64,000 nt of DNA. It comes from Dendrophyllia cribrosa. Lineage: Eukaryota > Cnidaria > Anthozoa > Scleractinia > Dendrophylliidae. Each line of letters starts with the position of its first letter. Position 1 is the first letter of the stretch. Below are positions 1-46,638 of the stretch, piece after piece. The translations under genes were made by a program, and so were the position numbers. The notes under the pieces were generated by a model that was given only the letters and a program-made list of their open reading frames with translations, was not told the DNA's origin and ran no database searches. Location of the stretch: NCBI GenBank assembly GCA_024195265.1, contig JAJLRJ010000007.1:7089058-7153057 (forward strand), in the 5' to 3' direction.

Positions 1-1
1 G

Positions 2-1435
2 TTCATCAACACTCCCAGCTACAAGTTCTTGGACATCATGAATTATTTGGCCCCAGGCATCACGTACGACAAGTGGGTCAAGACGTATGGAGCAACACAG
101 ACCAAGTCCTGGCTCCCATACGAGTGGTTTGACAGCGCTGACAAGCTGGATTACCCGGGGCTTCCTCCATACGAGTGCTGGTACTCACAACTCAAAAAAG
201 CCTTCGTTCTTTCTCCCAAGGAGCACGAGGAATGCAATCGCATCTTCCACGAGAAAGGCATGAAGACATTCGGAGACTGGCTGAAGTATTACAACAATCT
301 AGACGTGTCTCCCTTTCTCGAAGCTCTCCAAACGATGAAGGCCTTTTACACGGGCCTCGGGGTGGACATCTTTAAAGACGCGGTCTCCTTGCCAGGGGTA
401 TCAATGCAATACGTCTTGCGAGGCTCATTGAGAGGAGGGCGCAATGCTCCAGAGCTATACGCCCCCGGCCCAGAAGCTTACGCCATGCTGAAGGGGGCTG
501 TGGTTGGCGGCCCAAGCCTGGTCTTCACCTGCAAACACTTGCGCGGCGAAACCAGCATCCGTTCTCACAAATACGACTTAGCTCCCCTCACGAAACGGAT
601 TGTTGGGTTCGACGCTAACTAACTTTACCCAAGCACGATGCTGCAGGAGATGCCCTGTGGTAAAGAGAAGGTTGTGAATTACAATTTCCCGGTGCTGACG
701 GCAAGATCTCTCAAAACGAATCTGCATGCAGGCAGGTGGTTCGGGTTTGCGGAAGTGGACATCGAAGTCCCCCGAGAGTTGTGGGAGAAGTTCGAAGAGT
801 TTCCCCCGCTCTTCATCAATCAACCAGTGCCTGACGAATTTGTCCCACAGCATATGCACGATTACCTCCAAGAAAGTGGCCGAACCCGCTTTCCCGACCA
901 GAAAAAGCTTCTGGGTGTGTTGTCAGCAAAAAAGATGCTGATCTATGCACCCCTCTTGAAGTGGTATCTCAACATCGGGCTCAAGATCACGGCAGTCTAC
1001 CGCACGATCGATTACATACCCCAAAAGCTCTTCGACTGGTTCGTTCGCGAGGTCGCCGACAACCGAAGGAAAGGCGACGCTGACAGGGAGAAGGCACTGC
1101 TTGCTGAAGTGTTCAAGCTTCTTGGCAACGCCGCTTACGGCAAGTTCATCGAAGCTGTGGAGCGCCAGTTAAGAACGATGTACACAACGGACGAGGACGA
1201 GGTCGACAAGAACCTCCGCTCACCCTTGTTCGAGGATCTTGAAGAGATCGGAGATGCTTACAAGATCGAGCTGCGCAAGCCAAAGGTCACAATCGACCGC
1301 CCTTTTCAAGTTGGCATTGTTGTGTACCAACTTGCCAAGCTTCGCATGCTGGAGTTCTATTACGACTTCCTAGATTACTTCATCGACAGGCGTGACTTCG
1401 AGCTCATCCAGATGGACACGGACAGGTTTGTGTTC
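2..1435 (+). pseudogene. Protein-primed type B DNA polymerase, broken and truncated
   Basis: Replicative polymerase of the virus. The frame is open from base 2, so the N-terminus and exonuclease domain lie mostly outside the window. The first part has the family block YYNNLDVSPF and the pre-motif-A stretch ending VGFDAN. A TAA at 620-622 then replaces one codon inside motif A, and the same frame resumes at once with LYPS. Motif B (KLLGNAAYGKF, near 1110-1150) and motif C (MDTDR, near 1412-1426) follow; the usual DTDS is DTDR here. Polymerase similarity stops at about 1435, directly after motif C. The final 150-250 residues expected for the family are missing and replaced by sequence resembling a virus promoter, then low-complexity sequence. 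The family is clear; the state is pseudogene. Confidence 0.85.
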
Positions 1436-1461
1436 AGTATACATATGATTTTTATTTTTTC
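1436..1461 (-). promoter_or_regulatory. Orphan late-type promoter fused to the polymerase
   Basis: On the minus strand this AT-rich stretch ends in ATATGTATACT. It matches the promoter of the next minus-strand gene (1646-1672) and those at 2145-2170 and 2855-2885. No minus-strand gene lies to its left: it abuts polymerase coding sequence instead. I infer that a deletion removed the 3' end of the polymerase gene and the body of a convergent minus-strand gene, leaving only that gene's promoter. Confidence 0.55.
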
Positions 1462-1465
1462 TGAC

Positions 1466-1643
1466 TCAGACTCGGGCCTCGGCATCGGCCTCGGTCTCGG
1501 TCTCAGGCTCAGGCTCGGGCTCGTTGTGTCTGTTCATTGCCAATCCGAGAATTGTTTTAACGGAGGCCACGCTAAGTTTGCCCCAAAAAAGAAGCACACC
1601 TCCGATTGCAGCACCAGTCATGATCCCCTGTAAAAAAATCCAT
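1466..1643 (-). pseudogene. Small membrane protein with acidic EP-repeat tail, frameshifted near start
   Basis: The late-type promoter (TATATAC) points to an ATG at 1643, but that frame stops after 23 codons. A second ATG at 1621 opens a 51-codon frame ending at 1466-1468. It has a hydrophobic segment of about 20 residues (AAIGGVLLFWGKL onwards) followed by an acidic tail of alternating E with P, T or A. The two frames differ by one base across a run of seven A (plus strand, 1632-1638), a typical slippage site, so the original start was probably 1643. The family is not recognised. A small membrane-inserted virion component would fit the neighbours. Confidence 0.5.
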
Positions 1644-1645
1644 GT

Positions 1646-1672
1646 CCAGTATATATGTGATTTTGTTTTTTA
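1646..1672 (-). promoter_or_regulatory. Late-type promoter of the 1643 gene
   Basis: Minus-strand CACATATATACTGGAC directly precedes the ATG at 1643, with an A/T-rich stretch upstream. It belongs to the shared TATATAC class of this element. Confidence 0.55.
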
Positions 1673-2140
1673 TTCCATTTTTTTAATCCCTTGTCTTACC
1701 GGAATTCGAGATGGGGGTGTTGCAGCGGGTGGTGCAGCGGGTGTGTTTGCTGGTGTTGGTGTTGGTGTGTTTGATTTGCGACCGAACCTTTGCATTATGG
1801 CTTCGCGTTGGTAATAAACACCAGCAGCAGATACAACCAACCCTGCAACCCCCATAATATAAATGATTGAGTTGCTGTTGCTGTCACTTGTTGTGTCACC
1901 AGGGTCACTTGTTGCCCCACTTGTTGCCCCACTTGTTGAGGGCGCAGGCTTTTGCGCTTCGGCCTTTTTCTTTGCTTCACGGGCCAGGCGGTTGCGTTCT
2001 GCTAGCCTTTTGCCAAAAGCAACGCGGCCGGGGTTCTTTTCTGTTGCGGGCTTTGTTTTCGGGACCTCTGAGGTAACACGTGCAGGTGTAGGAGTTGGGG
2101 TTTGAGTTTCTTCAGGTATCGTCTCGAGTGGTGTGGCCAT
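1670..2140 (-). CDS. Basic, P/T-rich single-pass membrane protein, probable virion protein
   Basis: This intact 156-codon ORF starts at the ATG immediately downstream of TATATATACCC. Residues 1-35 are P/T/E-rich with a TPTPTP repeat. Residues about 38-65 are strongly basic (K/R alternating with A). Residues about 90-112 form one hydrophobic segment (IIYIMGVAGLVVSAAGVYY). The tail is again P/T/A-rich with a TPTPTP repeat. The layout resembles small core or membrane proteins of adeno- and polinton-like viruses, but I cannot name a family. It lies in the minus-strand cluster of structural genes. A role in binding DNA or linking it to an inner membrane is only an inference from the basic stretch and the single membrane segment. 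Confidence 0.6.
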   Translation of the reverse strand: MATPLETIPEETQTPTPTPARVTSEVPKTKPATEKNPGRVAFGKRLAERNRLAREAKKKAEAQKPAPSTSGATSGATSDPGDTTSDSNSNSIIYIMGVAGLVVSAAGVYYQREAIMQRFGRKSNTPTPTPANTPAAPPAATPPSRIPVRQGIKKME

Positions 2141-2170
2141 CGTGGGTATATATATGATTTTTTAATTTAT
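2141..2170 (-). promoter_or_regulatory. Late-type promoter TATATATACCC
   Basis: Minus-strand TCATATATATACCCACG lies directly before the ATG at 2140, after an A/T-rich run. Confidence 0.6.
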
Positions 2171-2188
2171 CTTGTGATACGTAAGCTG

Positions 2189-2231
2189 CCAGGTTCCAGC
2201 CAGGTTCCAGCCAGGTTCCAGCCAGGTTCCT
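2189..2231. repeat. 11-bp tandem repeat (CCAGGTTCCAG), about 4 copies
   Basis: Four near-perfect head-to-tail copies fill the gap between two minus-strand virus genes, just past the stop of the upstream one. Degenerate AGGTTCC copies continue to about 2245 and form the last codons of that gene. Confidence 0.85.
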
Positions 2232-2852
2232 TCAAGGTTCCTGCGAGGTCTGCACAGGTCCCAGCCCAACTTCATCAAAGCCCTCAAGTGGGTAACCTTC
2301 ACTGTCTCTGGTTGGATGTGTGGATTGATCTTCCAAAACAATTAAGTCAGCCTTGTCAGTATCTCGGTCAAACTTGATGTGGTTTGTTGTGATGAGAGCA
2401 GCATTGGCAAGCGCCAGCCATCGCTCGCATCGCAGGGCAAGGCCCCCAGCAAGCTTTGCCAGCTCCTGGTTGATGATGTAGTTGTTCTTGAGTTCTTGCT
2501 GCAACTCCTTAACATCATCAATCGGGGCCGCCATACCAACGCCTTTGGTCACGAGCGTGATGGCTTAATCAATTAGGGATTCGGTCGTCTTGTTACCGAC
2601 GTAGGCCTCGTACCTTTTGCAGTACTTCTCAACGTCCTTATCTGACAACCGCGCCACATGAGCATGTGTGAGCTGCACGCCGATAGCTTCCTTTGCCTTG
2701 CCAGTTGAAACAAGGATTGCAAGACTCTCACGTTTGGCAGGAATGCCATTGTCACCAACTAGCCCTGTTGGAGGTGCGGCACCAGGGGTGGCCTCCATCA
2801 TCTGCATTACTTCGTTCAAGTCGAGCTGGTCTTCAGCGGCTTCTGCCATCAT
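2232..2852 (-). pseudogene. Conserved element protein of unknown function, one in-frame stop
   Basis: The ATG pair at 2852/2849 follows the late-type promoter TATACCCTG. The frame runs 95 codons to an in-frame TAA at 2565-2567, then continues in the same frame for another 110 codons to 2232. Both halves read as ordinary protein. The first half has an acidic helical start (AEDQLDLNEVMQMME) and a charged block KDVEKYCKRYEAYVG just before the stop. The second half has a helical stretch ending LAKLAGGLALRCERWLALAN. I believe this two-part protein recurs in polinton-like elements, but no function is known to me. It is predicted soluble and mainly alpha-helical. The stop lies where a serine-type codon is plausible, so a single C-to-A change could explain it. 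Confidence 0.6.
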
Positions 2853-2885
2853 CAGGGTATACATATGTGTTTGTTTTTTATTTTT
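2853..2885 (-). promoter_or_regulatory. Late-type promoter ATATGTATACCC
   Basis: Minus-strand CACATATGTATACCCTG directly precedes the ATG at 2852, after an A/T-rich run. Confidence 0.6.
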
Positions 2886-3117
2886 CAATAATTCTCTTGA
2901 TGTCGGGCAAAAGGGTTTCAAGCTCACGTATAAGCCCCGCCATGGTGTCTGGCATAGAATTCAACCGCAATGGATATCTGGCCAGAAGCATGAGGCGCAG
3001 ATCTTCCTCGCCAGCAGCTTTGATAATTTTGTTTTGCGCATCAAGTGTGTGTTTGTGCAATTCATCCAAAAGCTGTGAAAGCACACACAGTTTGTGTAGG
3101 CTGGTTGGCGCATTCAT
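2878..3117 (-). CDS. Small helical protein (79 aa), unknown function
   Basis: This intact ORF begins at the ATG immediately after the late-type promoter TATATACC, the tightest spacing in the element. It is leucine- and charge-rich with no membrane segment. The pattern suggests two or three amphipathic helices (for example LSQLLDELHKHTLDAQNKI and the C-terminal LIRELETLLPDIKRIIEK). It overlaps the promoter region of the downstream gene, as expected for a compact virus genome. I do not recognise the family. Its place among structural genes and its promoter class suggest late expression. Confidence 0.55.
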   Translation of the reverse strand: MNAPTSLHKLCVLSQLLDELHKHTLDAQNKIIKAAGEEDLRLMLLARYPLRLNSMPDTMAGLIRELETLLPDIKRIIEK

Positions 3118-3135
3118 GGTATATATGTGTGTACT
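3118..3135 (-). promoter_or_regulatory. Late-type promoter TATATACC
   Basis: Minus-strand CACACATATATACC abuts the ATG at 3117. Confidence 0.6.
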
Positions 3136-3237
3136 GTATATTTGTGTGGCTGTGTGGCTGTGTGCGGCTGTGTGTGGCTGTACTCAATTCCATACGGGTG
3201 CCTGTGTGTGGCTGTACTCAATTCCATACGGGTGCCG
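3136..3237. repeat. 34-bp tandem duplication plus GTGTGGCT-rich run
   Basis: A unit containing TACTCAATTCCATACGGGTG occurs twice head to tail (about 3180-3237), with a TGTGTGGCTG-rich stretch to its left. The duplication forms the last codons of the packaging ATPase and appears to have replaced its natural C-terminus. Confidence 0.8.
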
Positions 3238-3804
3238 AAGGGAGAAAACCAGGTGGGAGAACTTGCGGGATTTGAGCCTTGCAATAAGCTCTTTGTACTC
3301 CTCGTGGGAGAGCTCGCCGGCATAGTCTTCGAAGATGGCTTTGGTGGTCTTGCTGGAGGGCGTGTAAAAGAGCACGATCGCTGCAATGTTATCGCGATAT
3401 GGCTTGGCAATGCTGGTGATCTGCTGGGTCAAGACCCACACGGATATGCCGTCATGCCTTGCGCTGAACCCCAGATTGACCAGCTGACTCGTGCGGCCTT
3501 TGACATCTTTGGAGGCGGCGCAGTCATCGAGAATGAATAAAGTGTTGGTGCATGTGAAAAAGAAGCTCGCCAGCTTCAACCAGGCTTCGATCTCATGCTG
3601 TTGGCAGACAATCACAAAGATGTGTGGATCGCGGTCCACGAAGCCATCGTATGTCTTGTTCTTAACAAATGTGGGGCAGAATAAAACGATGTAATCAAAA
3701 CAACCCCTAAAGGGGCCTCGCAGTTGGTTTAGAAGATACTGTGTCTTGCCAGAGTTAGTGGGGCCCACGATTAGTGCGTTGAATGGCAGCTTTCTTGGGT
3801 CCAT
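3184..3804 (-). CDS. Genome-packaging ATPase (FtsK/HerA, A32-like)
   Basis: Motor that pumps viral DNA into capsids. From the ATG at 3804 (206 codons) it shows Walker A GPTNSGKT at about residues 13-20 and Walker B LFILDDC near residue 90. An LTQQ sensor-type motif lies near residue 128. Size and motif spacing fit the ATPases of polintons, virophages and poxvirus A32. The late-type promoter lies not here but 160 bp upstream, before the 69-codon ORF at 3755-3964, which overlaps this start in another frame. The real protein therefore probably began at 3964, with a one-base frameshift near 3805. The C-terminus ends in residues encoded by a 34-bp tandem duplication. Family assignment is firm; N- and C-termini are doubtful. 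Confidence 0.85.
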   Translation of the reverse strand: MDPRKLPFNALIVGPTNSGKTQYLLNQLRGPFRGCFDYIVLFCPTFVKNKTYDGFVDRDPHIFVIVCQQHEIEAWLKLASFFFTCTNTLFILDDCAASKDVKGRTSQLVNLGFSARHDGISVWVLTQQITSIAKPYRDNIAAIVLFYTPSSKTTKAIFEDYAGELSHEEYKELIARLKSRKFSHLVFSLRHPYGIEYSHTQAPVWN

Positions 3805-3964
3805 AACCAACCGCTATATTAGTTGGTTTGTAAACTGGTGGGGAGGGGGCCTTTGCCAGAAGTCTTTGTATTTCATGGTGTGATAATGGTCTGGTGGATG
3901 GCAGGGGAGCCGGCTTGGCATAGAAGTTGATCTTGTTATTTGTGGTTTGTTGTTTTGTGGCCAT
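3755..3964 (-). CDS. 69-aa ORF with PPxY motif, likely split N-terminus of the ATPase
   Basis: The ATG at 3964 follows the late-type promoter TTATATACCC by 12 bases. The peptide is basic and P-rich and contains PPVY, a PPxY motif of the kind that recruits WW-domain ubiquitin ligases. Its last 17 codons overlap the start of the packaging ATPase in a different frame. Since the ATPase lacks its own promoter, I read this as the ATPase N-terminus, detached by a single-base frameshift near 3805. A genuine separate small gene with an overlapping start is the alternative. Confidence 0.5.
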   Translation of the reverse strand: MATKQQTTNNKINFYAKPAPLPSTRPLSHHEIQRLLAKAPSPPVYKPTNIAVGYGPKKAAIQRTNRGPH

Positions 3965-3995
3965 GGGTTGGTGGGTATATAATGTGTGTATAATA
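3965..3995 (-). promoter_or_regulatory. Late-type promoter TTATATACCC
   Basis: Minus-strand CACACATTATATACCCACCAACCC leads to the ATG at 3964. Confidence 0.55.
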
Positions 3996-4024
3996 TGTGC
4001 TTGTGCGTGCGTGTATGCGTTTAC

Positions 4025-5274
4025 TTAGTACTGTACAGATTCCAGCTGCTTGCCCAAGATGTTCATCTGTGAGTCTGAGATGGTGAAGATGTGGCAGTTT
4101 GCGGTTCCCGAGCCTTTACCGTCTCGTTCGATCTCGAGTTGCACGCCATCCTGTGTGTTGACAAGCCGTTGGCCGTTGCCGTGCAGGGCTGTGTCAGCCA
4201 TGGACCGCAGGTCAATCCAGAGGCCAAACTTGTTGCCTGTGAGATATTTGGTCAAGTTCATGTTGGGCCTGCCGTCCGTGTGTGGGGTAAAATGCCGGGT
4301 TATCTCTCTCCACATGTCAGTACCACTGATGCCCTCGTTGTAGATCCTGTTTGGGACCCCGTTGAATGTGACCTTCACTTTGGTGATGTCGGGGTTGAAA
4401 TAGCTCTCAGAGTCCCTGGCACCCGCTACATAGGGATTGATGAACAGCAAGAGGATGCCCTAGAGAGACCGGCGCTGTGGGTTAACCCGAAGATTCAGCC
4501 GAGTGTCAACGCCTTTTGTGAAGGGATGCACCCGATCTCGCATTACGAGGTCATAAGCGAACTCCTTACCGCTAGTGTAAGCGCTTGTTGCTTCGTCGGC
4601 CAGACTCTTACTTCTGATAGTCTCATACTCCAGCTGGAGGTTTTCCAACTTGTACACGAGCTTGCTTGTGTCTGAGCCCCGGACAACTTGGGTTGCGGGG
4701 GCGAGGGTTAGTTCGAAGATCAGATCGTTATATAACGCTTGAGGGTATATGATCCCATGATCAGTCAAGATTTGGTGATCCAGTTTGATGCGATACTTAT
4801 TCTTGTATATTGTCTCCAGCTTGTTCTCTGCATCCACGCTGGAGGTCTTCTTGTCGCCAGCACCAGAGCGAATCTTACACAAATCCACACTCTGGATGCC
4901 CTCCATAAGCATATTTTCCCGCTCATCGATTGATTTGAATAAGTCTTCGAAGATCTTGTAGATGTCGTACCCAACCGTGTCCTGGACAGTGGTGGCGGCA
5001 AACTTTACAACGAACCTGTCCACCAGGGCCCGAGAAACATTTTGCACGAGATAATTGTTAGCGTGGCCACCGGAGAGATTAATGTTAAACACCAGTGCAA
5101 GTGAGTCGGACACAATGACATTGGCTCGCCCAGCTTGGGCAACGAGACGTACAGTGTTTCGCCGATATTGGCCTCAGATGGGTTGAATGTGATGCGCTTG
5201 ACGGTTCGCTCTGCCTTCATGGCGCCCAGCGTCTTTTCACTGTGAGATGGAAGTAGATTCGGTTGCACAGCCAT
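4025..5274 (-). pseudogene. Double-jelly-roll major capsid protein, broken by a frameshift and one stop
   Basis: Probable main shell protein, about 416 residues. The ATG at 5274 abuts the late-type promoter TATATACC. The first 50 codons are in one frame, then a one-base deletion near 5128 shifts to the frame that carries the rest. A TAG at 4460-4462 interrupts that frame, which resumes immediately and runs to 4025. Recognisable blocks include SGGHANNYLVQNVSRALVDR, YDIYKIFEDLF, ERENMLMEGIQS and HQILTDHGIIYPQALYNDL (the loop-and-strand pattern of jelly-roll capsid proteins). RVNPQRRS precedes the stop, and NLTKYLTGNKFGLWIDLRSM follows it. The total of 1250 bases is one short of a whole number of codons, consistent with one deletion. 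The capsid call rests on pattern memory of polinton-like capsid proteins and genome context. Confidence 0.7.
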
Positions 5275-5315
5275 GGTATATATTTGTGTTTTTAAATTTA
5301 TATTTATATACCCCG
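5275..5315. promoter_or_regulatory. 41-bp divergent promoter for capsid (-) and coiled-coil protein (+)
   Basis: Both strands have the TATATAC motif within a few bases of the respective ATG: AATATATACC before 5274 on the minus strand and TTATATACCCCG before 5316 on the plus strand. Two late genes share one tiny AT-rich region. Confidence 0.6.
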
Positions 5316-6764
5316 ATGGCAGAAGGCGGATATGATCCAACTGAGATAACTGACAGAGACCCTCTCCCCCCAGGCACAGGGGATGACGGTGATGACGATG
5401 ACGAGGCTGAAGTTATGTGGAATCAAATGTCAGAAGAAGAACGCCGCCGATGGACCCAAGACACCGGCCCCAACACCACGCAACCCTTTGAACCAGGCGG
5501 TGTATCCACCCCATATCGTCCTGGCGAGCATATTGCAATGCATACATTGCCTAGCGAAGAAAGTGGGTTGCCAGGTTACCCTGAAACCGTCCCTCTGCTT
5601 GGAGAAATCATAGACGGAAATGAAAAAGCAGAGAGACTCGATAAAGCCATGGACTGGATCAAAAAGAAGTTTCCAAAAGTAAACATCCAGAAATTAGGCC
5701 CAATTGGTTTTGGTAAAAAACCAGCAAATGATGGCAAAATTGTTTCCTTTGGGCCAAAGGGCGGCGAATCTCTTATTTTCAAGCAAGATGAGAGCTTTCT
5801 TAAATCGTTCACAGACAAGTTCAAAACATCCCTTGGCCCAAGCGCTGAAGAGCTTCTCTATGAAAAGAATGCATCAATAAGGGAAGAAAGACAAAGATTG
5901 AAGGAGGCAGAAAAACAACGGAAGGAGAATGAAAGGGTTGCTTTGGAACTACAACAAGCACAAAATGAGGAGCAAAACCTCAGAAACCGAATCGAGCAAG
6001 AACAAGCGAGGATTGACGCCCTGGAGCAGGAACACGGTTCAAGCATTGAAAATCAAGCAGAGATAGACCGCCTAAAACTGCTGAAAAAGAATCTTCAACG
6101 AGATCTTGAAAACCAGAAAAAAGAATCAGTAGCCCTGCAAAAAATACAAAAACAACGATCCCAAGAACAGGCAAAGGCGAACAAAATCATAACACGCCTT
6201 TCTGCTGAGGTGAAGGAAAGAAATGAAGTTGAAGCAGGGCTAAACTCAACTAAACCCCTTGATGAGCTAAACGAAAGAGAAGCCGAGCTTGAACGGCAGA
6301 ACGCTGAAGACAAGCGCGTCATAGAGGATGAGAACACGTCTCCCTCTGAAAGAGAAGCCGCGGAAGACCGGGTTACTGAAAGAGAAGAAGAACTGGCAAG
6401 GCTCAGAACACAGGTTCAAGAAAGGGAACAAGCCCTGTCTTTGAGAGAGAGGGTCAGAGAAATCTTCAAGAAATACGGATGGACCCTGCAAGCGATTGTT
6501 CTGGCAGCTGGAATCACCATCAGCGCTGTGGTACTCGCCACCTTGAACGGCCTGGCAAAGGCCACCAAGGCTATTGGCAATGGGCTTAAATAGCTTGGCA
6601 AAAAGGCAGCCAGCGCACTGCCTGGCCTCATTGGCTCAATTGTGGGCTTCATCTTCAAAGCGGCTGGGTCGGTCATCTCCTTTCTGGGTGAACACGCCTG
6701 GCTGCTCATCCTTGCCGTGGTGGCCTTCCTTGTTGAAAGGATCACCAAGCGGGCGAAGTCTTAA
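5316..6764 (+). pseudogene. Long coiled-coil membrane protein, one in-frame stop near C-terminus
   Basis: The ATG at 5316 follows TTATATACCCCG. The frame runs 425 codons to a TAG at 6591-6593, continues in frame and ends at TAA 6762-6764 (483 codons in all). Residues 1-45 are acidic, with a run of D. Residues about 175-390 form a highly charged E/K/R/Q coiled coil. A hydrophobic segment follows (QAIVLAAGITISAVVLATL). After the stop come two more hydrophobic segments (GLIGSIVGFIFKAAGSVISF and WLLILAVVAFLVE) and a basic end. The hydrophobic tail behind the TAG resembles the C-terminus of such proteins in polinton-like elements as I remember them. That makes the TAG a probable nonsense mutation rather than the natural end. 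Likely virion or membrane-anchored protein; exact role unknown. Confidence 0.65.
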
Positions 6765-6878
6765 CTCTCTTGGGAGCACTTTTTTGAGCTCTAAAATTGG
6801 GCCCACTCTAGGGGGCGGAAAAATCACCAGGGTTACCGCCATTTTCGGCTACCTTTTTCAGGCGCTCAAAGGAGGGAT
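6765..6878. other. Convergent 3' gap
   Basis: Short non-coding interval between the coiled-coil gene (+) and the 605-aa gene (-). No clear terminator or polyadenylation signal was recognised. Confidence 0.4.
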
Positions 6879-8696
6879 TTATCTTAACCAAACGAAAACA
6901 CCTGCCAAAGCAAGCGCACCCACATCAATGAGTGCCTTGGAGACGTGATGTGAGTCTGGCTGTGGCGTGGGTGTGGGTGTGGGCGTGGGCGTGGGCGTGG
7001 GTGCGGGTGTGGGGGCTGGTTGTGGTGCGGCTGGGGCGATGCCCTGTGCCTGTGTGGCCTGTTTATGTATCGGGTTTGATGGGTGACTGTTTGGTGGATT
7101 GATCTTTGTTGGGCCACCGTCCATGTGGCGAAGGGAGGCTTTTTTTGTGCCCAGATTAACACCACTGTTCACGCCCAGCTTCATCCCTTGCGTTGCCTCC
7201 TGTAGATTGTTGTTATACCCGATCACGCTCTCTGTGTTGATAATCATGCGTGATGGCATGAGCCAACTTCCGGGGGCTGTCGCAAAGTCTAAGCGCACTT
7301 TCGTTGCTTGGATGGCAAGCTGGTAACGCTGTACGCTTGTTGTGATGTCGTTCAGTATTATGGCCTCCTCTAGATGGGTGAGGAATACTCTCTGCGTTTC
7401 GAACGCCCGGCCTCCTCTTCCAATGATGCTGCTGCGGGTTTTGGCTTGTGAACCAAGAATGCAGTACACAAAGGCCTCGATTGATTGGTTCATACGGGCG
7501 AGCCCTGGCTGTGTTAGCCCCTTTGCGTAATTTGGCACAAAGAGCTCGAACTGGGTGTCCGCCCCTTGGTCGTTGCGGACGAAAGATATTCCATTGGCGC
7601 GATAGTTGGGGTCGTTTCTGTCAGTCACGCGCTCATCATTGAACAGAGCTAGATCGGGGTCTGGATAATCGTAATCGGTAGAGATGATGCCCTCTCCATA
7701 AGCCCCAATGTAGACATTCCCAAGACCGTGGTTCTTGCCGTACGTGTAACGGAAGTCAGAACTTGGGTCGATGCCAAACTCTATGCAAATCTTCTTGTAC
7801 GCGTCGATGTTGTACTTGTTGTCTTTCTGGGAAAATGGAGGGTCGTCTGGCAAAGCACTCACGCTTTGCTCTCCGCCCATCTGGTAAAGAATTCGCCTCG
7901 TTGTGAAATAAACGTGAAACCGGTAAAACGACCGGAGCTGTGGGGTTAGAGATAGACTGGAGTTCTTATCGAATAGAATGTCACGCGAGATTCCACAGCC
8001 GGTTGTTGCACACCACAGGGAGAAGGAGAGTTGTTGCAGCCAAAAACTCATGTGCGGCCCACCGAGCCACTTTCTGCCGTATTTCGCGGTTGTGAATGAA
8101 ATCTGCGTGTCCCTGAAGATATTTCTGTATTTCGTTGTGAAATAATCAGTTGGCGTGACATAAATCTTTTGCTCTTTGTCGTTTAAGATTGCGCCAATCA
8201 TCATGTCTTTGTCTATTGTGGTGGTGAAAGCAACAGCCGGGATTGATAACATTTGTTGCCCCAACGATAACTGATAAGGGAAACCACCGTCATATACAAG
8301 GCCAAGAGCGTCTCTTTCGGCGCCAGTCCAATCTTTGTGGGCTATTTCTGTGATAAGTGCAAATGAGCCAGGGCCCTCTTTGTAAAGCAGTTCCCCTGTG
8401 GCGGTTTTGTGATCGTCGCCAAAATCTACTTGAACTTCAAAGTGAGACATATCGGCGCGAGGGAAACGCCTTTTGAAGTCTGAGATCGCCTTGGCCTTGG
8501 CCGCAGCAGAGAGCTTGGCAGCCTCCGGCGAACTCAACCAAGCAATTTCAGGATTAGGGGGTGGTGGCTTTGGCTTTACATGGGTATAGGCGTTTGGAGG
8601 CGAATAAAAAGGCGGTGGGGGTCCGTAATTGTGGCCGCCGATGTTTATACCAAGATTTGAATTAGGATTAAATCCACCAGGCCGTCCGCCAAACAT
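6879..8696 (-). CDS. 605-aa P-rich virion-type protein with PPxY motif, unknown family
   Basis: The largest intact ORF of the element. The ATG at 8696 follows TTATATACAATC. The N-terminal 60 residues are G/P/N-rich and contain PPPPFY, a PPxY motif as seen near the N-termini of some adenovirus penton and internal proteins. Residues about 80-520 form a globular region with no motif I can name; blocks include YVTPTDYFTTKYRNIFRDT and TATGELLYKEGPGSF. Residues about 545-590 are a proline/threonine repeat (6-bp minisatellite in DNA, plus strand 6960-7015). The protein ends with one hydrophobic segment (ALIDVGALALAGVFVW). Size, late-type promoter and lack of stops point to an abundant structural protein, for example penton, spike or tail-anchored minor capsid. 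This is inference only. Confidence 0.6.
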   Translation of the reverse strand: MFGGRPGGFNPNSNLGINIGGHNYGPPPPFYSPPNAYTHVKPKPPPPNPEIAWLSSPEAAKLSAAAKAKAISDFKRRFPRADMSHFEVQVDFGDDHKTATGELLYKEGPGSFALITEIAHKDWTGAERDALGLVYDGGFPYQLSLGQQMLSIPAVAFTTTIDKDMMIGAILNDKEQKIYVTPTDYFTTKYRNIFRDTQISFTTAKYGRKWLGGPHMSFWLQQLSFSLWCATTGCGISRDILFDKNSSLSLTPQLRSFYRFHVYFTTRRILYQMGGEQSVSALPDDPPFSQKDNKYNIDAYKKICIEFGIDPSSDFRYTYGKNHGLGNVYIGAYGEGIISTDYDYPDPDLALFNDERVTDRNDPNYRANGISFVRNDQGADTQFELFVPNYAKGLTQPGLARMNQSIEAFVYCILGSQAKTRSSIIGRGGRAFETQRVFLTHLEEAIILNDITTSVQRYQLAIQATKVRLDFATAPGSWLMPSRMIINTESVIGYNNNLQEATQGMKLGVNSGVNLGTKKASLRHMDGGPTKINPPNSHPSNPIHKQATQAQGIAPAAPQPAPTPAPTPTPTPTPTPTPQPDSHHVSKALIDVGALALAGVFVWLR

Positions 8697-8746
8697 GATT
8701 GTATATAATTATAATTATAAAAAAATATATATTTATATACACAATC
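8697..8746. promoter_or_regulatory. 50-bp divergent late promoter
   Basis: Almost pure A/T, with TTATATACAATC before the ATG at 8696 (minus) and TTATATACACAATC before the ATG at 8747 (plus). The two halves are near mirror images. Confidence 0.6.
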
Positions 8747-9418
8747 ATGGTTGTGTTAACAATCGTCACGGCTTCGAACCCTCACACGATCTACTTCGAT
8801 CACCCACTGCCGAAACCGAGTTATATCCGGCTTGTCTCTTGCTCAATTTTCAACTCGTGGCATAATTTGAAAGAAGAAGCAAAGATTTCACCAACAAACC
8901 CTCCCCCTAATGGTTCATCACGTGACGTGACCTTACTTCAAGGCCATTACACTATTGAACACTTAGCGAAAGACTTTGAAAGTCTAAAAACCCATGACAG
9001 CTGTTTAAATCTAACAATTGAAACAAACTCACCATACGGAGCCATGGTCATTCATAATAACAGCAGCAGTGTGACGTTTAGTGGCAATCTGGCAGAATTG
9101 CTTGGCATAAGGCCTGTATTGATGTTTATAACCTTCGTCAAGCGTTAAAGGGCACCAAGCACTTATTTCATCCACTGTGATCTGATTGATAAAGAACAAA
9201 ACCTCCTCAATGGTAAGCCTTCGACAGTTTTGGCTCGGTTTGATATTCGTGGAAAAGCTTTTGAGAAGGTTTATTACGAGACAACACAACAGAACGTCTT
9301 GCGTGACGTATCGGCCGGTGATTATGTAAACAGCATAACACTGTCAGTGAGGGATGAGAACAATGACCTCTTCAACTTCAATGACGCGCCTTTGGAATTT
9401 GAAGTTGAGATAAATTAA
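8747..9418 (+). pseudogene. Minor structural (penton/mCP-like) protein with two compensating frameshifts
   Basis: The ATG at 8747 follows the late-type promoter. The frame encodes a normal-looking protein to about codon 120 (NLAELLGI, near 9108). For roughly 55 bases the neighbouring frame then reads better (IDVYNLRQALKGTKH). From about 9163 the original frame is right again (YFIHCDLIDKEQNLLNGKPS through SITLSVRDENNDLFNF to TAA at 9416-9418). A missing base near 9108 and an extra T near 9163 explain this, and the whole is 224 codons. In the unshifted frame a TAA at 9146-9148 cuts the protein. The C-terminal block resembles one recurring in polinton-like elements, which I take to be a minor capsid or fibre protein; the specific role is uncertain. 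Confidence 0.6.
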
Positions 9419-9441
9419 AAAATATATATATACCCCACGCC
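9419..9441 (+). promoter_or_regulatory. Late-type promoter TATATATATACCCC
   Basis: AAATATATATATACCCCACGCC leads directly to the ATG at 9442. Confidence 0.6.
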
Positions 9442-10125
9442 ATGAGTTCTGCCAATGTGCTTCCATCGGCCCCCGAATACAGCGAGACACAACAGCTATA
9501 CCCTATGCGTGAGATCACTCAAATCAATGCAGAAGACTTCCGGCCCAAAAAGATCTCTTACTTGCTGAAGGAGTTGTCTGACGAAGCCGAGCATTACAGG
9601 CAAGTCGCAAAGAAATACAAACGAACCCAATCATTGGTTCATTACTCGGCGGTTGGCCTTGGGTCGCTTTCTGTCGGGCTGTCATCAGGGGCCCTTGCCA
9701 CTGCATTAACTGGGTTCGGAATTGTTGCAAGTCCAGCACTCGCCGGCGTCGCGACCCTCTGTGGGCTGTCCTCTGTTGGCTTTACAGCTCTCAACAAGAG
9801 GCTAGAGCGTAAAGTGACCAAACACGAGAATATCTATACACTGGCACTGGCTAAACGCAACACTGTCAATGAGCTAATCTCAAAGGCTCTGGAAGACAAG
9901 AGGATCAGTGATACAGAATTCACCATAATCACTCGTGAGTTGGAAAAATATCACGAACTCAAAGCTGCAATCAGGGATGGTGTAAAGGCATCAAAAAACG
10001 TTGCCACTCAAGCACAAACACCAGACCTCGAGAAACTCAAAAAAGAACTTCGCAAGGAAGTCAAACAAGAGTTTCAAAAAAAGATACTTCTCGCCACAAC
10101 ATCCAAATCCGATTTGAGAAACTAA
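9442..10125 (+). CDS. Membrane-associated virion-type protein with two hydrophobic helices (227 aa)
   Basis: Intact ORF with a late-type promoter. Residues about 45-65 are charged and helical (LKELSDEAEHYRQVAKKYKR). Residues about 70-118 are two long hydrophobic, glycine- and alanine-rich segments (SAVGLGSLSVGLSSGALAT onwards, then VASPALAGVATLCGLSSVGF) likely forming a membrane hairpin. A basic stretch with KLERK-like spacing and further amphipathic helices follow, ending in a lysine-rich coiled coil (LEKLKKELRKEVKQEFQKKI). I recall similar charged-helix / hydrophobic-hairpin / VTKHE proteins in polinton-like elements of invertebrates, where they are unnamed. A role in an internal membrane or in host-membrane interaction is inference. 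Confidence 0.65.
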   Translation: MSSANVLPSAPEYSETQQLYPMREITQINAEDFRPKKISYLLKELSDEAEHYRQVAKKYKRTQSLVHYSAVGLGSLSVGLSSGALATALTGFGIVASPALAGVATLCGLSSVGFTALNKRLERKVTKHENIYTLALAKRNTVNELISKALEDKRISDTEFTIITRELEKYHELKAAIRDGVKASKNVATQAQTPDLEKLKKELRKEVKQEFQKKILLATTSKSDLRN

Positions 10126-10422
10126 ACTCTGGCTTTAACCTACAAATCTTGAGGGAAAAATACCGCCACACATAGGCCCCTAAATTCCGAAGCGCCCCCG
10201 AAAAAAATTTTCAAAAAAAAAATTCCGAAGCGTTCCGTTTTATTTTTTTCAAAAAAATAAATTCCGAAGCGCCCCAACTTTGTTGAAAAAAGTTTTTCTG
10301 GGGCGCTTCGGTATGTTCGAGAAGCTTCGAAAAGTTGTAATTTTCTAAATGCGGCCTTTACACAACAATACCGGAAATCACGGGAAACCCCCAATTGAAA
10401 ACTGTAATCTCTAAATATAAAC
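10126..10422. repeat. Intergenic CCGAAGCG repeat array
   Basis: Three copies of an approximately 38-bp unit, with ATTCCGAAGCG starting at 10184, 10222 and 10261, are separated by A/T homopolymers. An inverted copy of the core (GGGGCGCTTCGG) follows at about 10299-10310. The array separates the late structural genes from the VLTF3-like gene. It could be a regulatory or replication site. A similar unit recurs at 13373-13506. Confidence 0.75.
10400..10422 (+). promoter_or_regulatory. Putative non-late promoter (TCTCTAAATATAAAC)
   Basis: The VLTF3-like gene start is preceded by TCTCTAAATATAAAC instead of TATATACC. It is AT-rich but lacks the TATATAC core found before every structural gene, which suggests a different expression class. 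Confidence 0.4.
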
Positions 10423-11085
10423 ATGACTGAGTTTGACGCACGGCTCAATGAACTTGACAAAGAATACAAATTCGCCCTCCTTCGCTCGCTATACGGCAGC
10501 GATTACAGAAAAGAAATACACCGCTTGGGCCTGCCGGAAAAACTTTATCGGTTATACAAAGATATGGGGTATGCAGAGATTGGGGAGCAATATCTACAAA
10601 AACATTACAAAGACATGGAGCTCGAACGCTGGGCCCGAAGACTCCCGTCTTGTTATGACTGCGGTGGCTCATTTTTACAATCAATCGAATCTTGTGAACT
10701 TTATTGTAAAAAATGCGGCCGTGTGGAAGTGGTCGATGATGCTCCGGCATGTACACATCAAAACAATTTCCACAGACAAAGCCATCGGCCTAGACGAAGT
10801 TATGCGTTTGGTTCTGCTTTGAACCGGCTTATCAAAAAGCTCAAATTTCTGCCTGTGCAGTTGACTCTCGATCAAATCCATAAAACGAAACGTATCTTCA
10901 AACAAATAGAAGATCAGCTCCCGAGAATATCTTATACGTTTGTGATCTACAAAATCCTGGGCATTATAACACCGCTTGAAGCCCCGCAACGGGCGATTGT
11001 AAATTGTCTGAGACAACGGATGTCAAATGCTATGATAATCAAAAACGAACATTTATGGGATAATGCATTCAGAACTTTGGAGTAA
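10423..11085 (+). CDS. VLTF3-like (poxvirus A2-type) late transcription factor
   Basis: Intact 220-codon ORF. Residues about 66-89 form a four-cysteine zinc ribbon (CYDCGGSFLQSIESCELYCKKCG: CxxC then CxxC). It is followed by a basic/His region and a helical C-terminal domain with an ISYTFVIYKILG block near residues 168-180. Zinc ribbon, spacer and IS/NFxSYxxVxYKxL-type block are the signature order of the VLTF3 family, which activates late promoters in poxviruses and other large DNA viruses. It lacks the late-type promoter, as expected for a factor made before late genes. Its last 17 bases overlap the convergent YqaJ gene. The family is remote, so I hold this with moderate confidence; a generic zinc-ribbon transcription factor is the alternative. 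Confidence 0.6.
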   Translation: MTEFDARLNELDKEYKFALLRSLYGSDYRKEIHRLGLPEKLYRLYKDMGYAEIGEQYLQKHYKDMELERWARRLPSCYDCGGSFLQSIESCELYCKKCGRVEVVDDAPACTHQNNFHRQSHRPRRSYAFGSALNRLIKKLKFLPVQLTLDQIHKTKRIFKQIEDQLPRISYTFVIYKILGIITPLEAPQRAIVNCLRQRMSNAMIIKNEHLWDNAFRTLE

Positions 11086-12181
11086 GCCTTGCCACTTGCT
11101 CCATTAGAAAGGCTTCCAAAACGGCCTTGTCATCGCCTGTGTTTGGAATTGTGGCAGAGTCCTCAGTGTAAGTATAATTTCTGATTCTTCCTTTCAATTT
11201 TGATAAATTGTCATGAAAGCATTCAACCGATCTTTGAATGTCACTCAAGAAATCTGGGTTTTTAAACTCCCAAATTTCAGTGAGATCGAGCAATTTCCAA
11301 GCGAACATTGCGACAGGTTTCGGCCATTCTCTACGCGGGTTAGAGAACGCTTCTTTCATGTAATTAAAACGTAAAAATTCGTCATTTTCGTCACGGGCTG
11401 TGAACTCCATTCGTATTTTGCCATGAGAAAGCCAAACATCTTTAGTGGCTATTAAACCCATGACATGTTCAAACAAAGCAATTGTTTGTGTTGCACCAAG
11501 ATCAATAAGTTCGGCTTGGTTGCTCTTGATGTTTTGTTTACTGAATAGATAACAGACCCCCCAGGCAAGAGTTGAATTGTTTTTTGTCTTGTATGTTTTC
11601 CCGGCGTTGAGAAAAGAATTGTGAGCTAAACTTGGTTCAAGCTGATTTAAAGAACACATTCTGAAATAGCCGTCAACAAACAAGCCTTTGGAGACCATGT
11701 CGCCACTCAAAGCAAGCCCTGTTTGTATCTGATCGCAATAATAGCTAGGAATCTTGTTCATAGCTATTTTTCGCTTGAACGGGCATTTAAACTCCAAAAG
11801 AATTAAGCTGCCGTCTTTATCCTTGAAATATCCGTCTGGGCTTCAAGTGACCTTTCGATAAAGCTGATGCTCTCTTGCAAGATTAAGAGATATGCTGTGG
11901 CCAAAAACGGAAACAGAATGTTTTTGCTCAAAATACTTGCGTATAATCGGCTCGAACAGATTGCCCCAGGTACAAGCCGTATTGTTGAGCATGTGTGTTG
12001 GCTGAATTTTCTTCATGAGCAAGCTGTGCCGTGATTCAAACGGCGACGATCCTGTCAAGGCAGAAATCTCTGATGCCCCAATTGTATATTGTCTGGCTGA
12101 GAGCCAGTCGGCGCTCTTTTGTTTCAGGCCAGTGTGTCTCGATTTGAGAAAGTTCATGAACTCTTGTGTTGCCGTCATCAT
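11069..12181 (-). pseudogene. YqaJ/lambda-type exonuclease (viral recombinase), one in-frame stop
   Basis: The start is the ATG pair at 12181/12178, overlapping the stop of the zinc-finger gene as ATGA. The N-terminal part carries WLSARQYTIGASEISALTGS, the typical N-terminal motif of YqaJ-type nucleases. The frame meets TGA at 11843-11845 and continues in frame with SPDGYF and, 10 residues on, LLEFKCP. Together these are the D...ExK catalytic core of this PD-(D/E)xK family, so the stop sits one codon before the catalytic block. The full frame is 371 codons, ending at 11069. Such enzymes resect DNA ends for single-strand annealing recombination and replication in phages and large DNA viruses. 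An upstream TATACC lies inside the zinc-finger gene. Confidence 0.75.
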
Positions 12182-12738
12182 TGGTATACAAAGTCCGTGC
12201 GTTTTTTCAATTGGTGATAACCACACAACTCTGTTTGAAAAGCTGCGAGTGGTGTCTTGCCTTCGATGAAATCAGAAACAAAGCTCAAATCTCGGATCCT
12301 AGGTAAGGGATTGAGATCCTCCAGGCTTAGCTCTTCAAGACATTGTTGTTCTTGCTCGTCAAGCCAGACATTCAGCTCATGCTGGTTAATGTTTGCAAAA
12401 ACATCTCGAACAACCTCACGCTGTATAAAAATTCGAGGGTTGTTTTTCGCGGGAGGGCAACCATTTCTTAAGTGTCTGGCAACCGTTTGTCTAGACAATC
12501 TTCGATTGCATCCGAGACAAAGCTCCTTCGGTCGTGGTTCTGTTCGCAGATTCTTGCAAGCGTATTTTTGATGCTCAACAAGAGAATGCCCTTGGGTGAA
12601 GTTTAAACCACAATGTCTGCAAGGGTTGTATTCGAACGTCCCTTTGTTCTTTGCGTATAAGTCATCACCTTCTTTAAACACAATTCCCCTCATTTTCAAA
12701 AACGCAACGGCAGTCATTGGTTCGTTGACGAGGGGCAT
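12178..12738 (-). CDS. Two-zinc-finger DNA-binding-type protein (186 aa)
   Basis: Intact ORF from the ATG at 12738. It has two Cys/His clusters: CRHCGLNFTQGHSLVEHQKYAC (residues about 41-62, C2H2-like plus an extra C) and CLGCNRRLSRQTVARHLRNGC (about 75-95). An acidic helical region follows (LDEQEQQCLEELSLEDL). I do not recognise a named family. Its stop codon overlaps the start of the YqaJ gene (ATGATGA), so the two are likely expressed together, probably as an early replication/recombination pair. The upstream region has CCATATAAAGGTGACA, a TATAAA-type box about 10 bases before the ATG, unlike the late TATATAC motif. Confidence 0.65.
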   Translation of the reverse strand: MPLVNEPMTAVAFLKMRGIVFKEGDDLYAKNKGTFEYNPCRHCGLNFTQGHSLVEHQKYACKNLRTEPRPKELCLGCNRRLSRQTVARHLRNGCPPAKNNPRIFIQREVVRDVFANINQHELNVWLDEQEQQCLEELSLEDLNPLPRIRDLSFVSDFIEGKTPLAAFQTELCGYHQLKKRTDFVYQ

Positions 12739-12760
12739 TGTCACCTTTATATGGGGGTTT
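12739..12760 (-). promoter_or_regulatory. TATAAA-type promoter of the zinc-finger gene
   Basis: Minus-strand CCCATATAAAGGTGACA precedes the ATG at 12738. It is of a different class from the TATATAC late motif. Confidence 0.45.
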
Positions 12761-12859
12761 GGATTTCTCCAATTGGTTATGCCTCACTTGCCGTTGCGGG
12801 AGAGGTCGGGAAAAACGCATTTGACCCCCTCTTGCGGGGTTTGAGGGAGGGGTATCCAG

Positions 12860-12986
12860 AGTAGTGTAAAGAGTGGCGCGTCAAATACGGTTTTTTAAAA
12901 CCCCTAAATAAGCGGGCCGAACGCGTGAGGCCCGCTTATTTAGGGGTTTTAAAAAACCGTATTTGACCGCCACTCTATACACTACT
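12860..12986. repeat. Near-perfect palindrome, ~58-bp arms, 10-bp loop
   Basis: Arms 12860-12918 and 12929-12986 are reverse complements with only one or two differences. The outer ends read AGTAGTGTA and TACACTACT. It lies just beyond the last virus gene, so it could be a hairpin terminus, two fused element ends, or an unrelated foldback element inserted at the boundary. Confidence 0.85.
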
Positions 12987-13372
12987 GCTTTTGATGCTTG
13001 TTTATGAAATACAAGGTCACCCAACGAGGCTATTTAGTGAACTTTTTATATTAATGACAAACCCTGGATATCCGTTTCATTCATCATTAATTTTATCTGT
13101 CATTTGCAACTCAAAATGGCGGGATACCAGTTTCTAGAAAACCGAATTGTTTGTTCATAATACTTAAGCTTAAAATTGCACTTCAACATCGCATATTTCA
13201 TTTGTAATACACAATCTTGCTACAGGGAATGTTGAAGTTTTTGCTGCATAGAACATTGAGCTCCATGTTTAAAAACTAATTCATATGTTTTGGGTGCATC
13301 ACATTGAACTTGACAGAGTCTAAATAATGGGACTTTCCATTTTCTATCCGCACCCCCCCTAAAGATGGCAGG
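12987..13372. other. Non-coding, nothing recognised
   Basis: AT-rich sequence with no convincing ORF or repeat. Host or outer element DNA. Confidence 0.4.
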
Positions 13373-15407: not shown

Positions 15408-16593
15408 TTAAGGAGGCTCGTACCCATTTCTCAAGTCCACACCCTTTCAATTTTAATGGGCCATATCTTTTGTTGTTGCGCATAAAAAGACAGGCCACTT
15501 TGCATGAAAACACACAATACACTGAACTTTATGTGAGTATAGGATTTGTTTACATGGGTGCTTCCATGGCAACAGAATGGTGATCCTCCGAAATTCACAA
15601 GTTGCGGAGTTTCTCTAGATCGAGAGAATTTTTTGTAAAACCCGCTACTGGACTAATTAATTAGACCATGGGCTTCAACTGGACAAAGTTTAAAAGAAAT
15701 GTATGAGAGCGTTCTTGAAATTTTGGGGGATGAAGTTTTGGGGATTGTAAATACAGTGAAAAACATACTATCGACCTTATTGGCTAATATCTAAAGAAAA
15801 CGACGCGCGATGGGAATGCAGTTTCATCTCAAAATAGTTTGACTCCATTTGAAATAGTGTGGGAAAAAGTGAGGGGGTTGCTTTGGCCGATTGCGAGAAA
15901 GAAGGATTTGATTAGCGTGCGTTCAGCTGCTCATTGTTGCCATTTTTGTATGTAATTTGGTCTACGCCTACAAATGTGATGATAATTTGGAAACAGCGAG
16001 ATAATTTTTTTTTAAAATTGACAATCTGGGGCCGGATTCACGAAGCCCTCCTAAGTTAAGACATATCCTAAGTATTGTTTCTTAACAATAGCCTATTGTC
16101 ATTCCAACAATTAAATTAATTATCAATTTATATGGCCTGCAAGTTTCAAGGGCACTGAAGACATTCAAGGCAATAATATAGGGCCCCCAATGTACCAATT
16201 TACTCCCGCAGATTTTGAGTTTACAAGTGAGAGTCCTCATTATTCACGAGTATTGTTTTAAAGTTTCATATGCACGTGCAAAACTTTAGCAAAAAATTTA
16301 TTTGCATCGAACAGAACGCTCGATTGCTTTCCGAAGAATTTTCCGAAACATGCTAATAACTGGCTTGCGTTACGAATAGCAATGACAACAGTACTGATGA
16401 AGACAACGTCGGAAACGTCACGTTTAATTTCATCAAGTGGGATGCAGAAATAACACGCTTTGGCAATGGTTTATGATTGTCTCACTCTGGTTATTTGTTG
16501 CAATCGGCGTAGCATCTGTTACTTATTTAGATATAATATAGCGCAAAGCAAAATTCTCAGCTAAAATATAAAATTGTCACACTGTTCTTGCGT

Positions 16594-42030: not shown

Positions 42031-42383
42031 GGTTTTACAACGTTCGCGCTAATTGTTCATGGCTTTATGCGCATCCTTACTGCACACGCAATCCATGTTG
42101 CAACTCCATGCTACGCAATGTAAGAGCACGTGCGCCAAGGAAGAAATTTATCAGCACAAAGGGATGGTAGCCGTTGTGTCAATTTTGCTTAGACGTAACT
42201 CGCTGGATGGTCGGTGACCCCTACTTTGTTTTGGATAGATAATTTTCTTTACTAATTCTCGACAGATTGTGAAAAGATGAACAAAAAATCAATGAAGAAC
42301 GTTTAAAAATTTCCCATTTTTTGCCCACGCAACATCGTTCTTTTTATTACGTCAATGTAACCTTGCCTACTTTGATTTCACAG

Positions 42384-42419
42384 AGCCACTGCCAAGAAAG
42401 GTTCCCGGAATTAGCACGG
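42384..42419 (+). CDS. Exon 5 (linker), copy 1
   Basis: Between TTTGATTTCACAG and GTATGT; 36 bases, phase 1 to phase 1. Encodes a short basic, proline-containing linker (PLPRKVPGIST). It joins exon 4 to the ShKT exon in frame, which supports the call despite its size. An identical copy lies at 49782-49817. Confidence 0.6.
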
Positions 42420-46611: not shown

Positions 46612-46638
46612 CCCCCCCCCCCCCCCCCCCCCCCCCCC
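46612..46638. repeat. Poly-C run, 27 C (28 in copy 2 at 54010-54037)
   Basis: The one-base length difference is the only indel seen between the two 7.4-kb copies. Confidence 0.9.

What the first reader, a model, noticed from the sequence alone, without database searches (positions are those of the whole stretch)
1..12990. Endogenous virus combining Polinton-type genes with a VLTF3-like factor and a YqaJ recombinase in an animal genome
Seen: polymerase B, packaging ATPase, jelly-roll capsid-like protein, VLTF3-like zinc ribbon, YqaJ-type nuclease and zinc-finger gene in one 13-kb block next to clear metazoan DNA. Known: VLTF3 is a hallmark of nucleocytoplasmic large DNA viruses, while the remaining set is Polinton-like. 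No integrase or adenain-type protease is visible. Inference: a lineage bridging polinton-like viruses and large DNA viruses that infects or once infected cnidarians.
Basis: partly seen in the sequence, partly recalled or inferred. Interest (0 to 1): 0.88.

Follow-up and report, generated by a model that had tools for sequence, protein, structure and literature searches.

The report
Dead Polinton-type virus with giant-virus genes
A 15-kb dead copy of a Polinton-type DNA virus sits in an animal-like genome and seems to carry a late-gene switch and a DNA-processing enzyme usually seen in giant viruses, with a matching promoter signal at its structural genes but no detectable integrase.

Summary
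Mostly confirmed, and now bounded. Window 1-12,986 is the right 86% of a 15,124-bp element. Its left end lies in the flank (L012), with 224-bp inverted repeats (220 of 224 identical), terminal palindromes and a 5-bp target duplication. PolB starts 22 bp inward of the left repeat. Pfam finds no integrase or adenain in the unit. ATPase (Pox_A32, 1.7e-14) and YqaJ (6e-10) are firm; PolB is sound but broken; no search confirmed the capsid. VLTF3 stays below Pfam's cut-off (best E 0.02; 15.0 against 25 bits), with support from a zinc ribbon, a second VLTF3-YqaJ pair in the genome, and a promoter split: TATATAC lies 1-10 nt before an ATG at 9 of 9 element sites and 0 of 9 host sites, and is absent at PolB, VLTF3 and the zinc-finger gene. 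Six genes carry an in-frame stop, so this copy is dead. Published neighbours: a Stylophora coral Polinton, and Amoebidium elements pairing VLTF3 with adintovirus-like PolB. Best reading: a new variant of Polinton-type virus with a giant-virus-like late switch. A bridging lineage and a cnidarian host were not shown.

The parts
12763..12986 (.). right terminal inverted repeat, 224 bp; mate at L012 7863-8086 outside the window
   Evidence: 220 of 224 identical, no gaps
12860..12986 (.). terminal palindrome, arms 59/58 nt, 10-nt centre
   Evidence: the same sequence matches the left end in both orientations
12987..12991 (.). right copy of the 5-bp target site duplication GCTTT; left copy L012 7858-7862
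   Evidence: abuts both termini exactly
2..1633 (+). PolB, C-terminal part in two same-frame pieces (2-622, 638-1633); N-terminal 630 aa in L012 8109-9998. In-frame TAA at 620-622; low-complexity DNA after about 1447
   Evidence: Pfam DNA_pol_B_2 2.4e-4 on 638-1633; tblastn to other genome PolBs, E down to 7e-21
1670..2140 (-). 156-aa protein, function unknown; TATATAC 5 nt before its ATG
2232..2852 (-). unknown protein in two same-frame pieces with an in-frame TAA; TATACCC 2 nt before its ATG
2878..3117 (-). 79-aa ORF; TATATAC 1 nt before its ATG
   Evidence: no NCBIfam hit
3184..3964 (-). A32-type packaging ATPase; ORF 3184-3810; N-terminal part apparently upstream in another frame, from an ATG at 3964 with TATATAC 10 nt before it; 34-bp tandem duplication at the 3' end (3168-3236)
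   Evidence: Pfam Pox_A32 1.7e-14, over its cut-off
4025..5274 (-). candidate major capsid protein, broken: 4025-4450 and 4460-5113 in one frame with a TAG between; N-terminal piece (ORF 5005-5340) in another frame
   Evidence: ORFs, stop; capsid identity recalled from motifs only, no supporting hit
5316..6948 (+). coiled-coil protein with hydrophobic segments (ORF 5247-6593), in-frame TAG at 6591-6593; end uncertain
   Evidence: relative P0114 reads antisense through 6305-6691 at 59%
6879..8696 (-). 605-aa conserved protein, intact ORF, fold unknown
   Evidence: 1671 relatives among the 7993 candidates scored; best 120 at 54-60% identity
8747..9418 (+). possible fibre/vertex protein, in-frame TAA at 9146-9148
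   Evidence: no family or PDB hit; identity is a guess from recall
9442..10125 (+). 227-aa SLATT-like protein (weak)
   Evidence: NCBIfam SLATT_1 0.0015, under its cut-off
10423..11085 (+). VLTF3-like factor, 220 aa, intact; CxxC...CxxC zinc ribbon
   Evidence: Pfam Pox_VLTF3 E 0.12 whole, 0.02 last 77 aa, under its cut-off; degraded relative beside YqaJ in L019
11069..12226 (-). YqaJ/lambda-type exonuclease, in-frame TGA at 11843-11845
   Evidence: Pfam 6.4e-10; 189 relatives among 296 candidates; profile best PDB match R354 6.9e-8
12178..12744 (-). zinc-finger-like protein
   Evidence: weak C2H2 matches

Best explanation
It is a dead, fairly young insertion of a Polinton-type (Preplasmiviricota) double-stranded DNA virus, complete from end to end at 15,124 bp. 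Shown: inverted repeats, terminal palindromes, 5-bp target duplication, gene order, broken genes, the promoter-like motif. Inferred: in life, a Polinton-type PolB copied the linear genome and the A32-type ATPase filled a capsid; early genes without the motif (PolB, VLTF3-like factor, zinc-finger gene) came first; the VLTF3-like factor then switched on the structural genes through TATATAC(C) sites lying 1-10 nt before their start codons, an almost leaderless arrangement unlike ordinary host promoters; the YqaJ exonuclease processed or recombined the palindromic ends. The target duplication implies integrase-type insertion, yet no integrase gene is recognisable, so the enzyme was probably supplied in trans by another element, or belongs to an unrecognised family.
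For: Both ends and target duplication. ATPase, PolB, YqaJ. VLTF3; at E<=1 it was hit by 1 of 17 element ORFs and is not among the 25 families shown (of 28) for 24 host ORFs. A degraded VLTF3-like stretch (28 of 69 identical; E 3.1e-6 in the search of 28 loci) lies convergent with a YqaJ gene (60 and 73% for its two pieces) in L019. TATATAC: 9 of 9 element sites are 1-10 nt before an ATG, 0 of 9 host sites in the window (16-78 nt; four of these are two sites seen twice in a duplication) and 0 of 3 in the left host flank. TATATACC: 6 of 6 in the element. 0 of 5000 random sets of 9 element ATGs shared a 6- or 7-mer as widely as the nine starts tested. In 5 of 5 relatives of the 605-aa protein with residues before MADYN these end in IYM, compatible with ATATAC-ATG. 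605-aa and YqaJ relatives share 15 contig lengths (115 and 110 distinct, best 120 of each list) against a mean of 0.008 for shifted lengths.
Against: VLTF3 never reaches Pfam's cut-off. The L019 relative alone gave no VLTF3 hit (0 of 1). No VLTF3 relative in the protein database (116 candidates, none at E<=0.001) or IMG/VR, although the 605-aa and YqaJ proteins have many in the protein database, so the gene may not be general in the family. The motif was found after looking, some of the nine starts were chosen with the upstream DNA in view, and sets of AT-rich ATGs reach the observed sharing in 5 of 3000 (6-mers) and 1 of 3000 (7-mers) draws (that pool of 44 may include true starts). YqaJ has a bare TATACC at its start and fits neither class cleanly. 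Shared contigs are mostly long (13 of 15 over 150 kb), so they show the same genomes more than the same element. Capsid identity is unproven. The 220-aa structure model (mean pLDDT 45.9) is not usable. Neither transcription nor virions are shown.
Confidence: 0.68

Rival explanations
1. An ordinary Polinton whose 220-aa zinc-ribbon protein is not VLTF3: an unrelated small regulator whose helices resemble the VLTF3 profile by chance.
For: All VLTF3 scores are below the 25-bit cut-off; no relatives found; another zinc family scores about as well (PF25080 at 0.031-0.074); the L019 relative has no VLTF3 hit.
Against: The claim was made before any search, so for this one profile the chance is about 0.12/24736, near 5e-6, for the whole protein; the helices follow a zinc ribbon; the gene lacks the motif found at the structural genes.
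Confidence: 0.27
2. A non-autonomous deletion derivative: a longer Polinton with integrase and adenain lost these genes and moved with a sister's integrase. This can be true together with the best explanation.
For: 5-bp target duplication without a detected integrase gene; at least 159 DNA_pol_B_2 matches in the genome, some of them two parts of one gene, so helpers are likely.
Against: PolB starts beside one inverted repeat and the zinc-finger gene beside the other, without visible remnants; no sister copy was compared end to end.
Confidence: 0.4
3. Insertion by the virus's own unusual route: YqaJ exonuclease and hairpin ends replace the integrase.
For: 127-bp terminal palindromes; YqaJ present; no integrase found.
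Against: An exact short target duplication is the usual mark of integrase-type strand transfer; YqaJ-type nucleases are not known (recalled) to make one.
Confidence: 0.12
4. A chimera in the assembly or genome: a giant-virus fragment (VLTF3, YqaJ) landed beside or inside a Polinton.
For: G+C falls from about 0.50 on the left to 0.40-0.46 in the right third.
Against: One pair of inverted repeats encloses everything; YqaJ and 605-aa relatives share contig lengths; the motif reaches the 227-aa gene next to VLTF3.
Confidence: 0.03

Closest known systems
Stylophora coral adintovirus / polinton (PMC11071308; abstract, section 11 and passages seen)
   Same: Polinton-type PolB virus-like element in an animal genome
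   Different: There the terminal protein is a separate gene. Its full gene list was not seen, so VLTF3, YqaJ and ends could not be compared
Adintovirus-like elements of Amoebidium (PMC11244446; passages seen)
   Same: VLTF3 together with adintovirus-like PolB and capsid proteins in one compact endogenous element
   Different: About 30 kb, with a Dam methylase, in an ichthyosporean; the paper is not among those listed for YqaJ with polinton (4 of 5 listed); terminal palindromes and a late-promoter motif were not in the passages seen
Stony-coral polintoviruses (Stephens 2024, PMC11131425: not held; title seen in a reference list; content recalled)
   Same: Abundant Polinton-type elements in corals (recalled)
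   Different: Could not be compared here
Mriyaviruses (PMC11253617; passages seen)
   Same: Small viruses with VLTF3, packaging ATPase, capsid and a PDDEXK nuclease
   Different: 35-45 kb; [quoted passage not shown] they carry an HUH endonuclease. The paper states that VLTF2/3 homologues were not detectable outside Nucleocytoviricota
VLTF3 copies in Exaiptasia (PMC5294986; passages and table rows seen)
   Same: VLTF3 in a cnidarian genome, grouped there with Asfarviridae
   Different: Described as isolated among metazoan genes; the present element suggests another reading, untested

Membership tests
Polinton / Polintoviricetes | protein-primed family B polymerase | tested here: inconclusive
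   PolB family match; terminal-protein and vOTU regions judged by eye and recall only; N part has only weak zinc-finger and Vsr matches
Polinton / Polintoviricetes | A32/FtsK-type packaging ATPase | tested here: met
Polinton / Polintoviricetes | double jelly-roll major and single jelly-roll minor capsid proteins | tested here: inconclusive
   no supporting profile or PDB sequence hit; no fold obtained
Polinton / Polintoviricetes | long terminal inverted repeats and short target duplication | tested here: met
   224 bp, 98.2%; 5 bp rather than the 6 bp recalled for Polintons
Polinton / Polintoviricetes | retrovirus-type integrase | tested here: not met
   no Pfam hit in 17 ORFs (E<=1), 89 stop-to-stop frames (E<=0.1) and the PolB N part (E<=1); a strongly diverged one could be missed
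Polinton / Polintoviricetes | adenain-type protease | tested here: not met
   same calls
Adintovirus | Polinton PolB with integrase in an animal-associated virus | tested here: not met
   no integrase found; definition recalled, founding paper not held
Nucleocytoviricota | VLTF3 | tested here: inconclusive
   below cut-off
Nucleocytoviricota | D5 helicase, RNA polymerase, large genome | tested here: not met
   15.1 kb; no such Pfam hit

The most novel reading that the evidence does not exclude
A lineage of Polinton-type animal viruses has its own giant-virus-like late transcription system: a VLTF3 factor, itself under a different promoter, that switches structural genes on from almost leaderless TATATACC promoters, and hairpin-ended genomes handled by a YqaJ exonuclease instead of the classical Polinton integrase and protease set.
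Probability: 0.3. Interest if true: 0.85.

Novelty: new variant of a known kind. Interest (0 to 1): 0.62.

Why it matters
VLTF3 has been treated as diagnostic for Nucleocytoviricota (PMC11253617, passage). If Polinton-type viruses of animals carry it with a matching promoter class, it cannot be used alone to call giant-virus insertions in animal genomes, and isolated VLTF3 genes such as those in Exaiptasia may be remnants of small viruses. It also makes a question testable: how a virus without a detected RNA polymerase uses a late factor, with host polymerase II or with that of a co-infecting giant virus.

Tried and rejected
IMG/VR scans with the ATPase, the 605-aa alignment, PolB and the 220-aa protein found no relative. 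A DNA pattern for a VLTF3 motif recalled from memory found 3 loci; the frames there did not look like VLTF3 by eye and were not scanned. That a VLTF3 pattern found none suggests the collection is poor in such viruses, so these absences weigh little. A scan of prokaryote genomes with the YqaJ alignment found no relative. tblastn against phages gave RecE-like nucleases for the YqaJ piece (175 records) and chance matches or nothing for VLTF3, ATPase and PolB. The model of the 605-aa protein is poor (pLDDT 41.3) and had no match at E<=0.001. The single-sequence model of the 220-aa protein (45.9) was not searched. One-codon recoding of the in-frame stops was considered and rejected: TAA three times, TAG twice, TGA once. 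The terminal palindrome as a separate small insertion was rejected when the same sequence turned up at the left end.

The genome search was answered once; 29 other requests did not complete because the machine was busy, so a genome-wide count of VLTF3, of the 605-aa protein and of the inverted repeat is missing. From the PolB places listed, 20 downstream stretches were fetched: 1 of 20 (L019) held VLTF3- and YqaJ-like DNA; none of 28 loci searched (these 20 and L004-L011) held the inverted repeat. They were picked from the stronger PolB hits, whose PolBs are only about 25-43% like this one where they match, so the low count says little.
Full report
What is there. The window is bases 7,089,058-7,153,057 of contig C20 in an unnamed 627-Mb genome of 22 contigs. 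Its first 12,986 bases belong to one element. The left end was found in the flank L012: L012 7863-8086 is the inverted copy of window 12763-12986, 220 of 224 bases identical. The outer 127 bp are a near-perfect palindrome, and that sequence also matches the left end in both orientations. GCTTT abuts both termini, a 5-bp target duplication; the chance of an exact 5-mer there is about 1 in 1000. The whole is 15,124 bp. PolB begins at L012 8109, 22 bases inward of the left repeat, so no further gene is hidden on that side.

Genes. ATPase and YqaJ are firm. YqaJ has 189 relatives at E<=0.001 among 296 candidates. The profile of an alignment of the window piece with 26 of them matches the solved chain named R354 best (6.9e-8), ahead of another exonuclease (3syy, 1.2e-4) and lambda exonuclease (0.0026); that R354 is a mimivirus protein is recalled. 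PolB matches other polymerases of the same genome and DNA_pol_B_2 below its cut-off; the genome gave 159 DNA_pol_B_2 matches, a lower bound in which one gene can count twice. The 605-aa protein is a strongly conserved family: 1671 of the 7993 candidates scored at E<=0.001, the best 120 at 54-60% identity, on contigs of up to 3.5 Mb. Its fold is unknown. In relatives, frames that run on past this gene match the window antisense into both neighbours: P0114 into the coiled-coil gene (59%), and six (P0001, P0002, P0022, P0034, P0035, P0053) across the divergent start at 8.7-8.9 kb (36-42%), so this neighbourhood is conserved in some relatives. The capsid candidate is named from recalled motifs alone; no search supported it.

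VLTF3. The Pfam score is 12.5 bits for the whole protein, 13.2 and 13.7 trimmed, 15.0 for the last 77 residues (E 0.12, 0.072, 0.053, 0.02; cut-off 25 bits); the trimming was chosen after the first hit. Because VLTF3 was predicted before searching, the relevant chance is that of one profile among 24,736, about 5e-6 for the whole protein. A second, degraded VLTF3-like stretch lies beside a YqaJ gene in the same convergent order in L019 (28 of 69 identical); by itself it has no VLTF3 hit. I hold VLTF3 as likely, not proven.

Promoter-like motif. TATATACC occurs 6 times in 64 kb, all 6 in the element. TATATAC occurs 18 times: the 9 in the element are 1, 1, 4, 4, 5, 5, 6, 8 and 10 nt before an ATG; the 9 outside are 16-78 nt away, and three more in the left host flank are 56, 144 and 263 nt away. 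Eight of the nine element sites precede an ORF named here; the ninth (1655 -) precedes no ORF of 60 aa or more. Genes with it are the 156-aa, 79-aa, ATPase, capsid-candidate, coiled-coil, 605-aa, fibre-like and 227-aa genes. The gene starting at 2852 (-) has TATACCC, YqaJ a bare TATACC. PolB, VLTF3 and the zinc-finger gene lack it. Random sets of element ATGs never reached the observed sharing (0 of 5000), AT-rich ones rarely (5 and 1 of 3000). This is the split expected if VLTF3 serves late structural genes; that step is inference.

Decay. Six genes show an in-frame stop between two same-frame pieces: PolB, the 2852 (-) gene, capsid candidate, coiled-coil, fibre-like, YqaJ. That the pieces belong together is backed by relatives for YqaJ and the coiled-coil gene, by frame and spacing for the others. 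Capsid candidate and ATPase also seem to change frame near their starts. With 4 of 224 bases different between the repeats this fits neutral decay after a fairly recent insertion (inference). The 605-aa, 227-aa, 156-aa, 79-aa and VLTF3-like frames are open.

Integration. No integrase or adenain domain was found in 17 ORFs at E<=1, in 89 stop-to-stop frames at E<=0.1 (of 94 listed, five left out) or in the PolB N part. A highly diverged or broken one could be missed. The target duplication suggests an integrase acting in trans.

Literature. Mriyavirus authors state that VLTF2/3 homologues were not detectable outside Nucleocytoviricota (PMC11253617, passages). Against that, VLTF3 with adintovirus-like PolB is reported in Amoebidium (PMC11244446, passages) and isolated VLTF3 in Exaiptasia (PMC5294986, passages). 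Cnidarian Polinton capsid genes fall outside the main Maverick-Polinton cluster (PMC10120064, section 9). A Polinton of Stylophora is described in PMC11071308 (abstract, section 11, passages). Most listed papers were not opened, and the stony-coral polintovirus paper is not held, so the novelty claim goes no further than that.

Noticed in passing
window 42031-49428 and 49429 onward: Apparent tandem duplication with a 7,398-bp step, identical over the 300-nt pieces reported; recent duplication or assembly artefact.
   Followed up: no
window 62210-62512 (+): Fragment of another family B polymerase: DNA_pol_B_2 at 6.7e-5 was matched by one of the 24 host ORFs; that it is this ORF is read from its sequence. 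Perhaps a second Polinton-type relic.
   Followed up: no
window 15592-17986: Large inverted-repeat structure around a DEAD-helicase fragment.
   Followed up: no
window 1655 (-): A TATATAC site 5 nt before an ATG without an ORF of 60 aa or more, where the PolB 3' part is missing: perhaps the start of a lost gene.
   Followed up: partly
window 5274-5316 and 8696-8747: Two divergent gene pairs share short AT-rich promoter regions with the motif facing each gene.
   Followed up: partly
L019 3170-4973: Second VLTF3-YqaJ convergent pair in the same genome, VLTF3 degraded; part of the fetched stretch is masked.
   Followed up: partly
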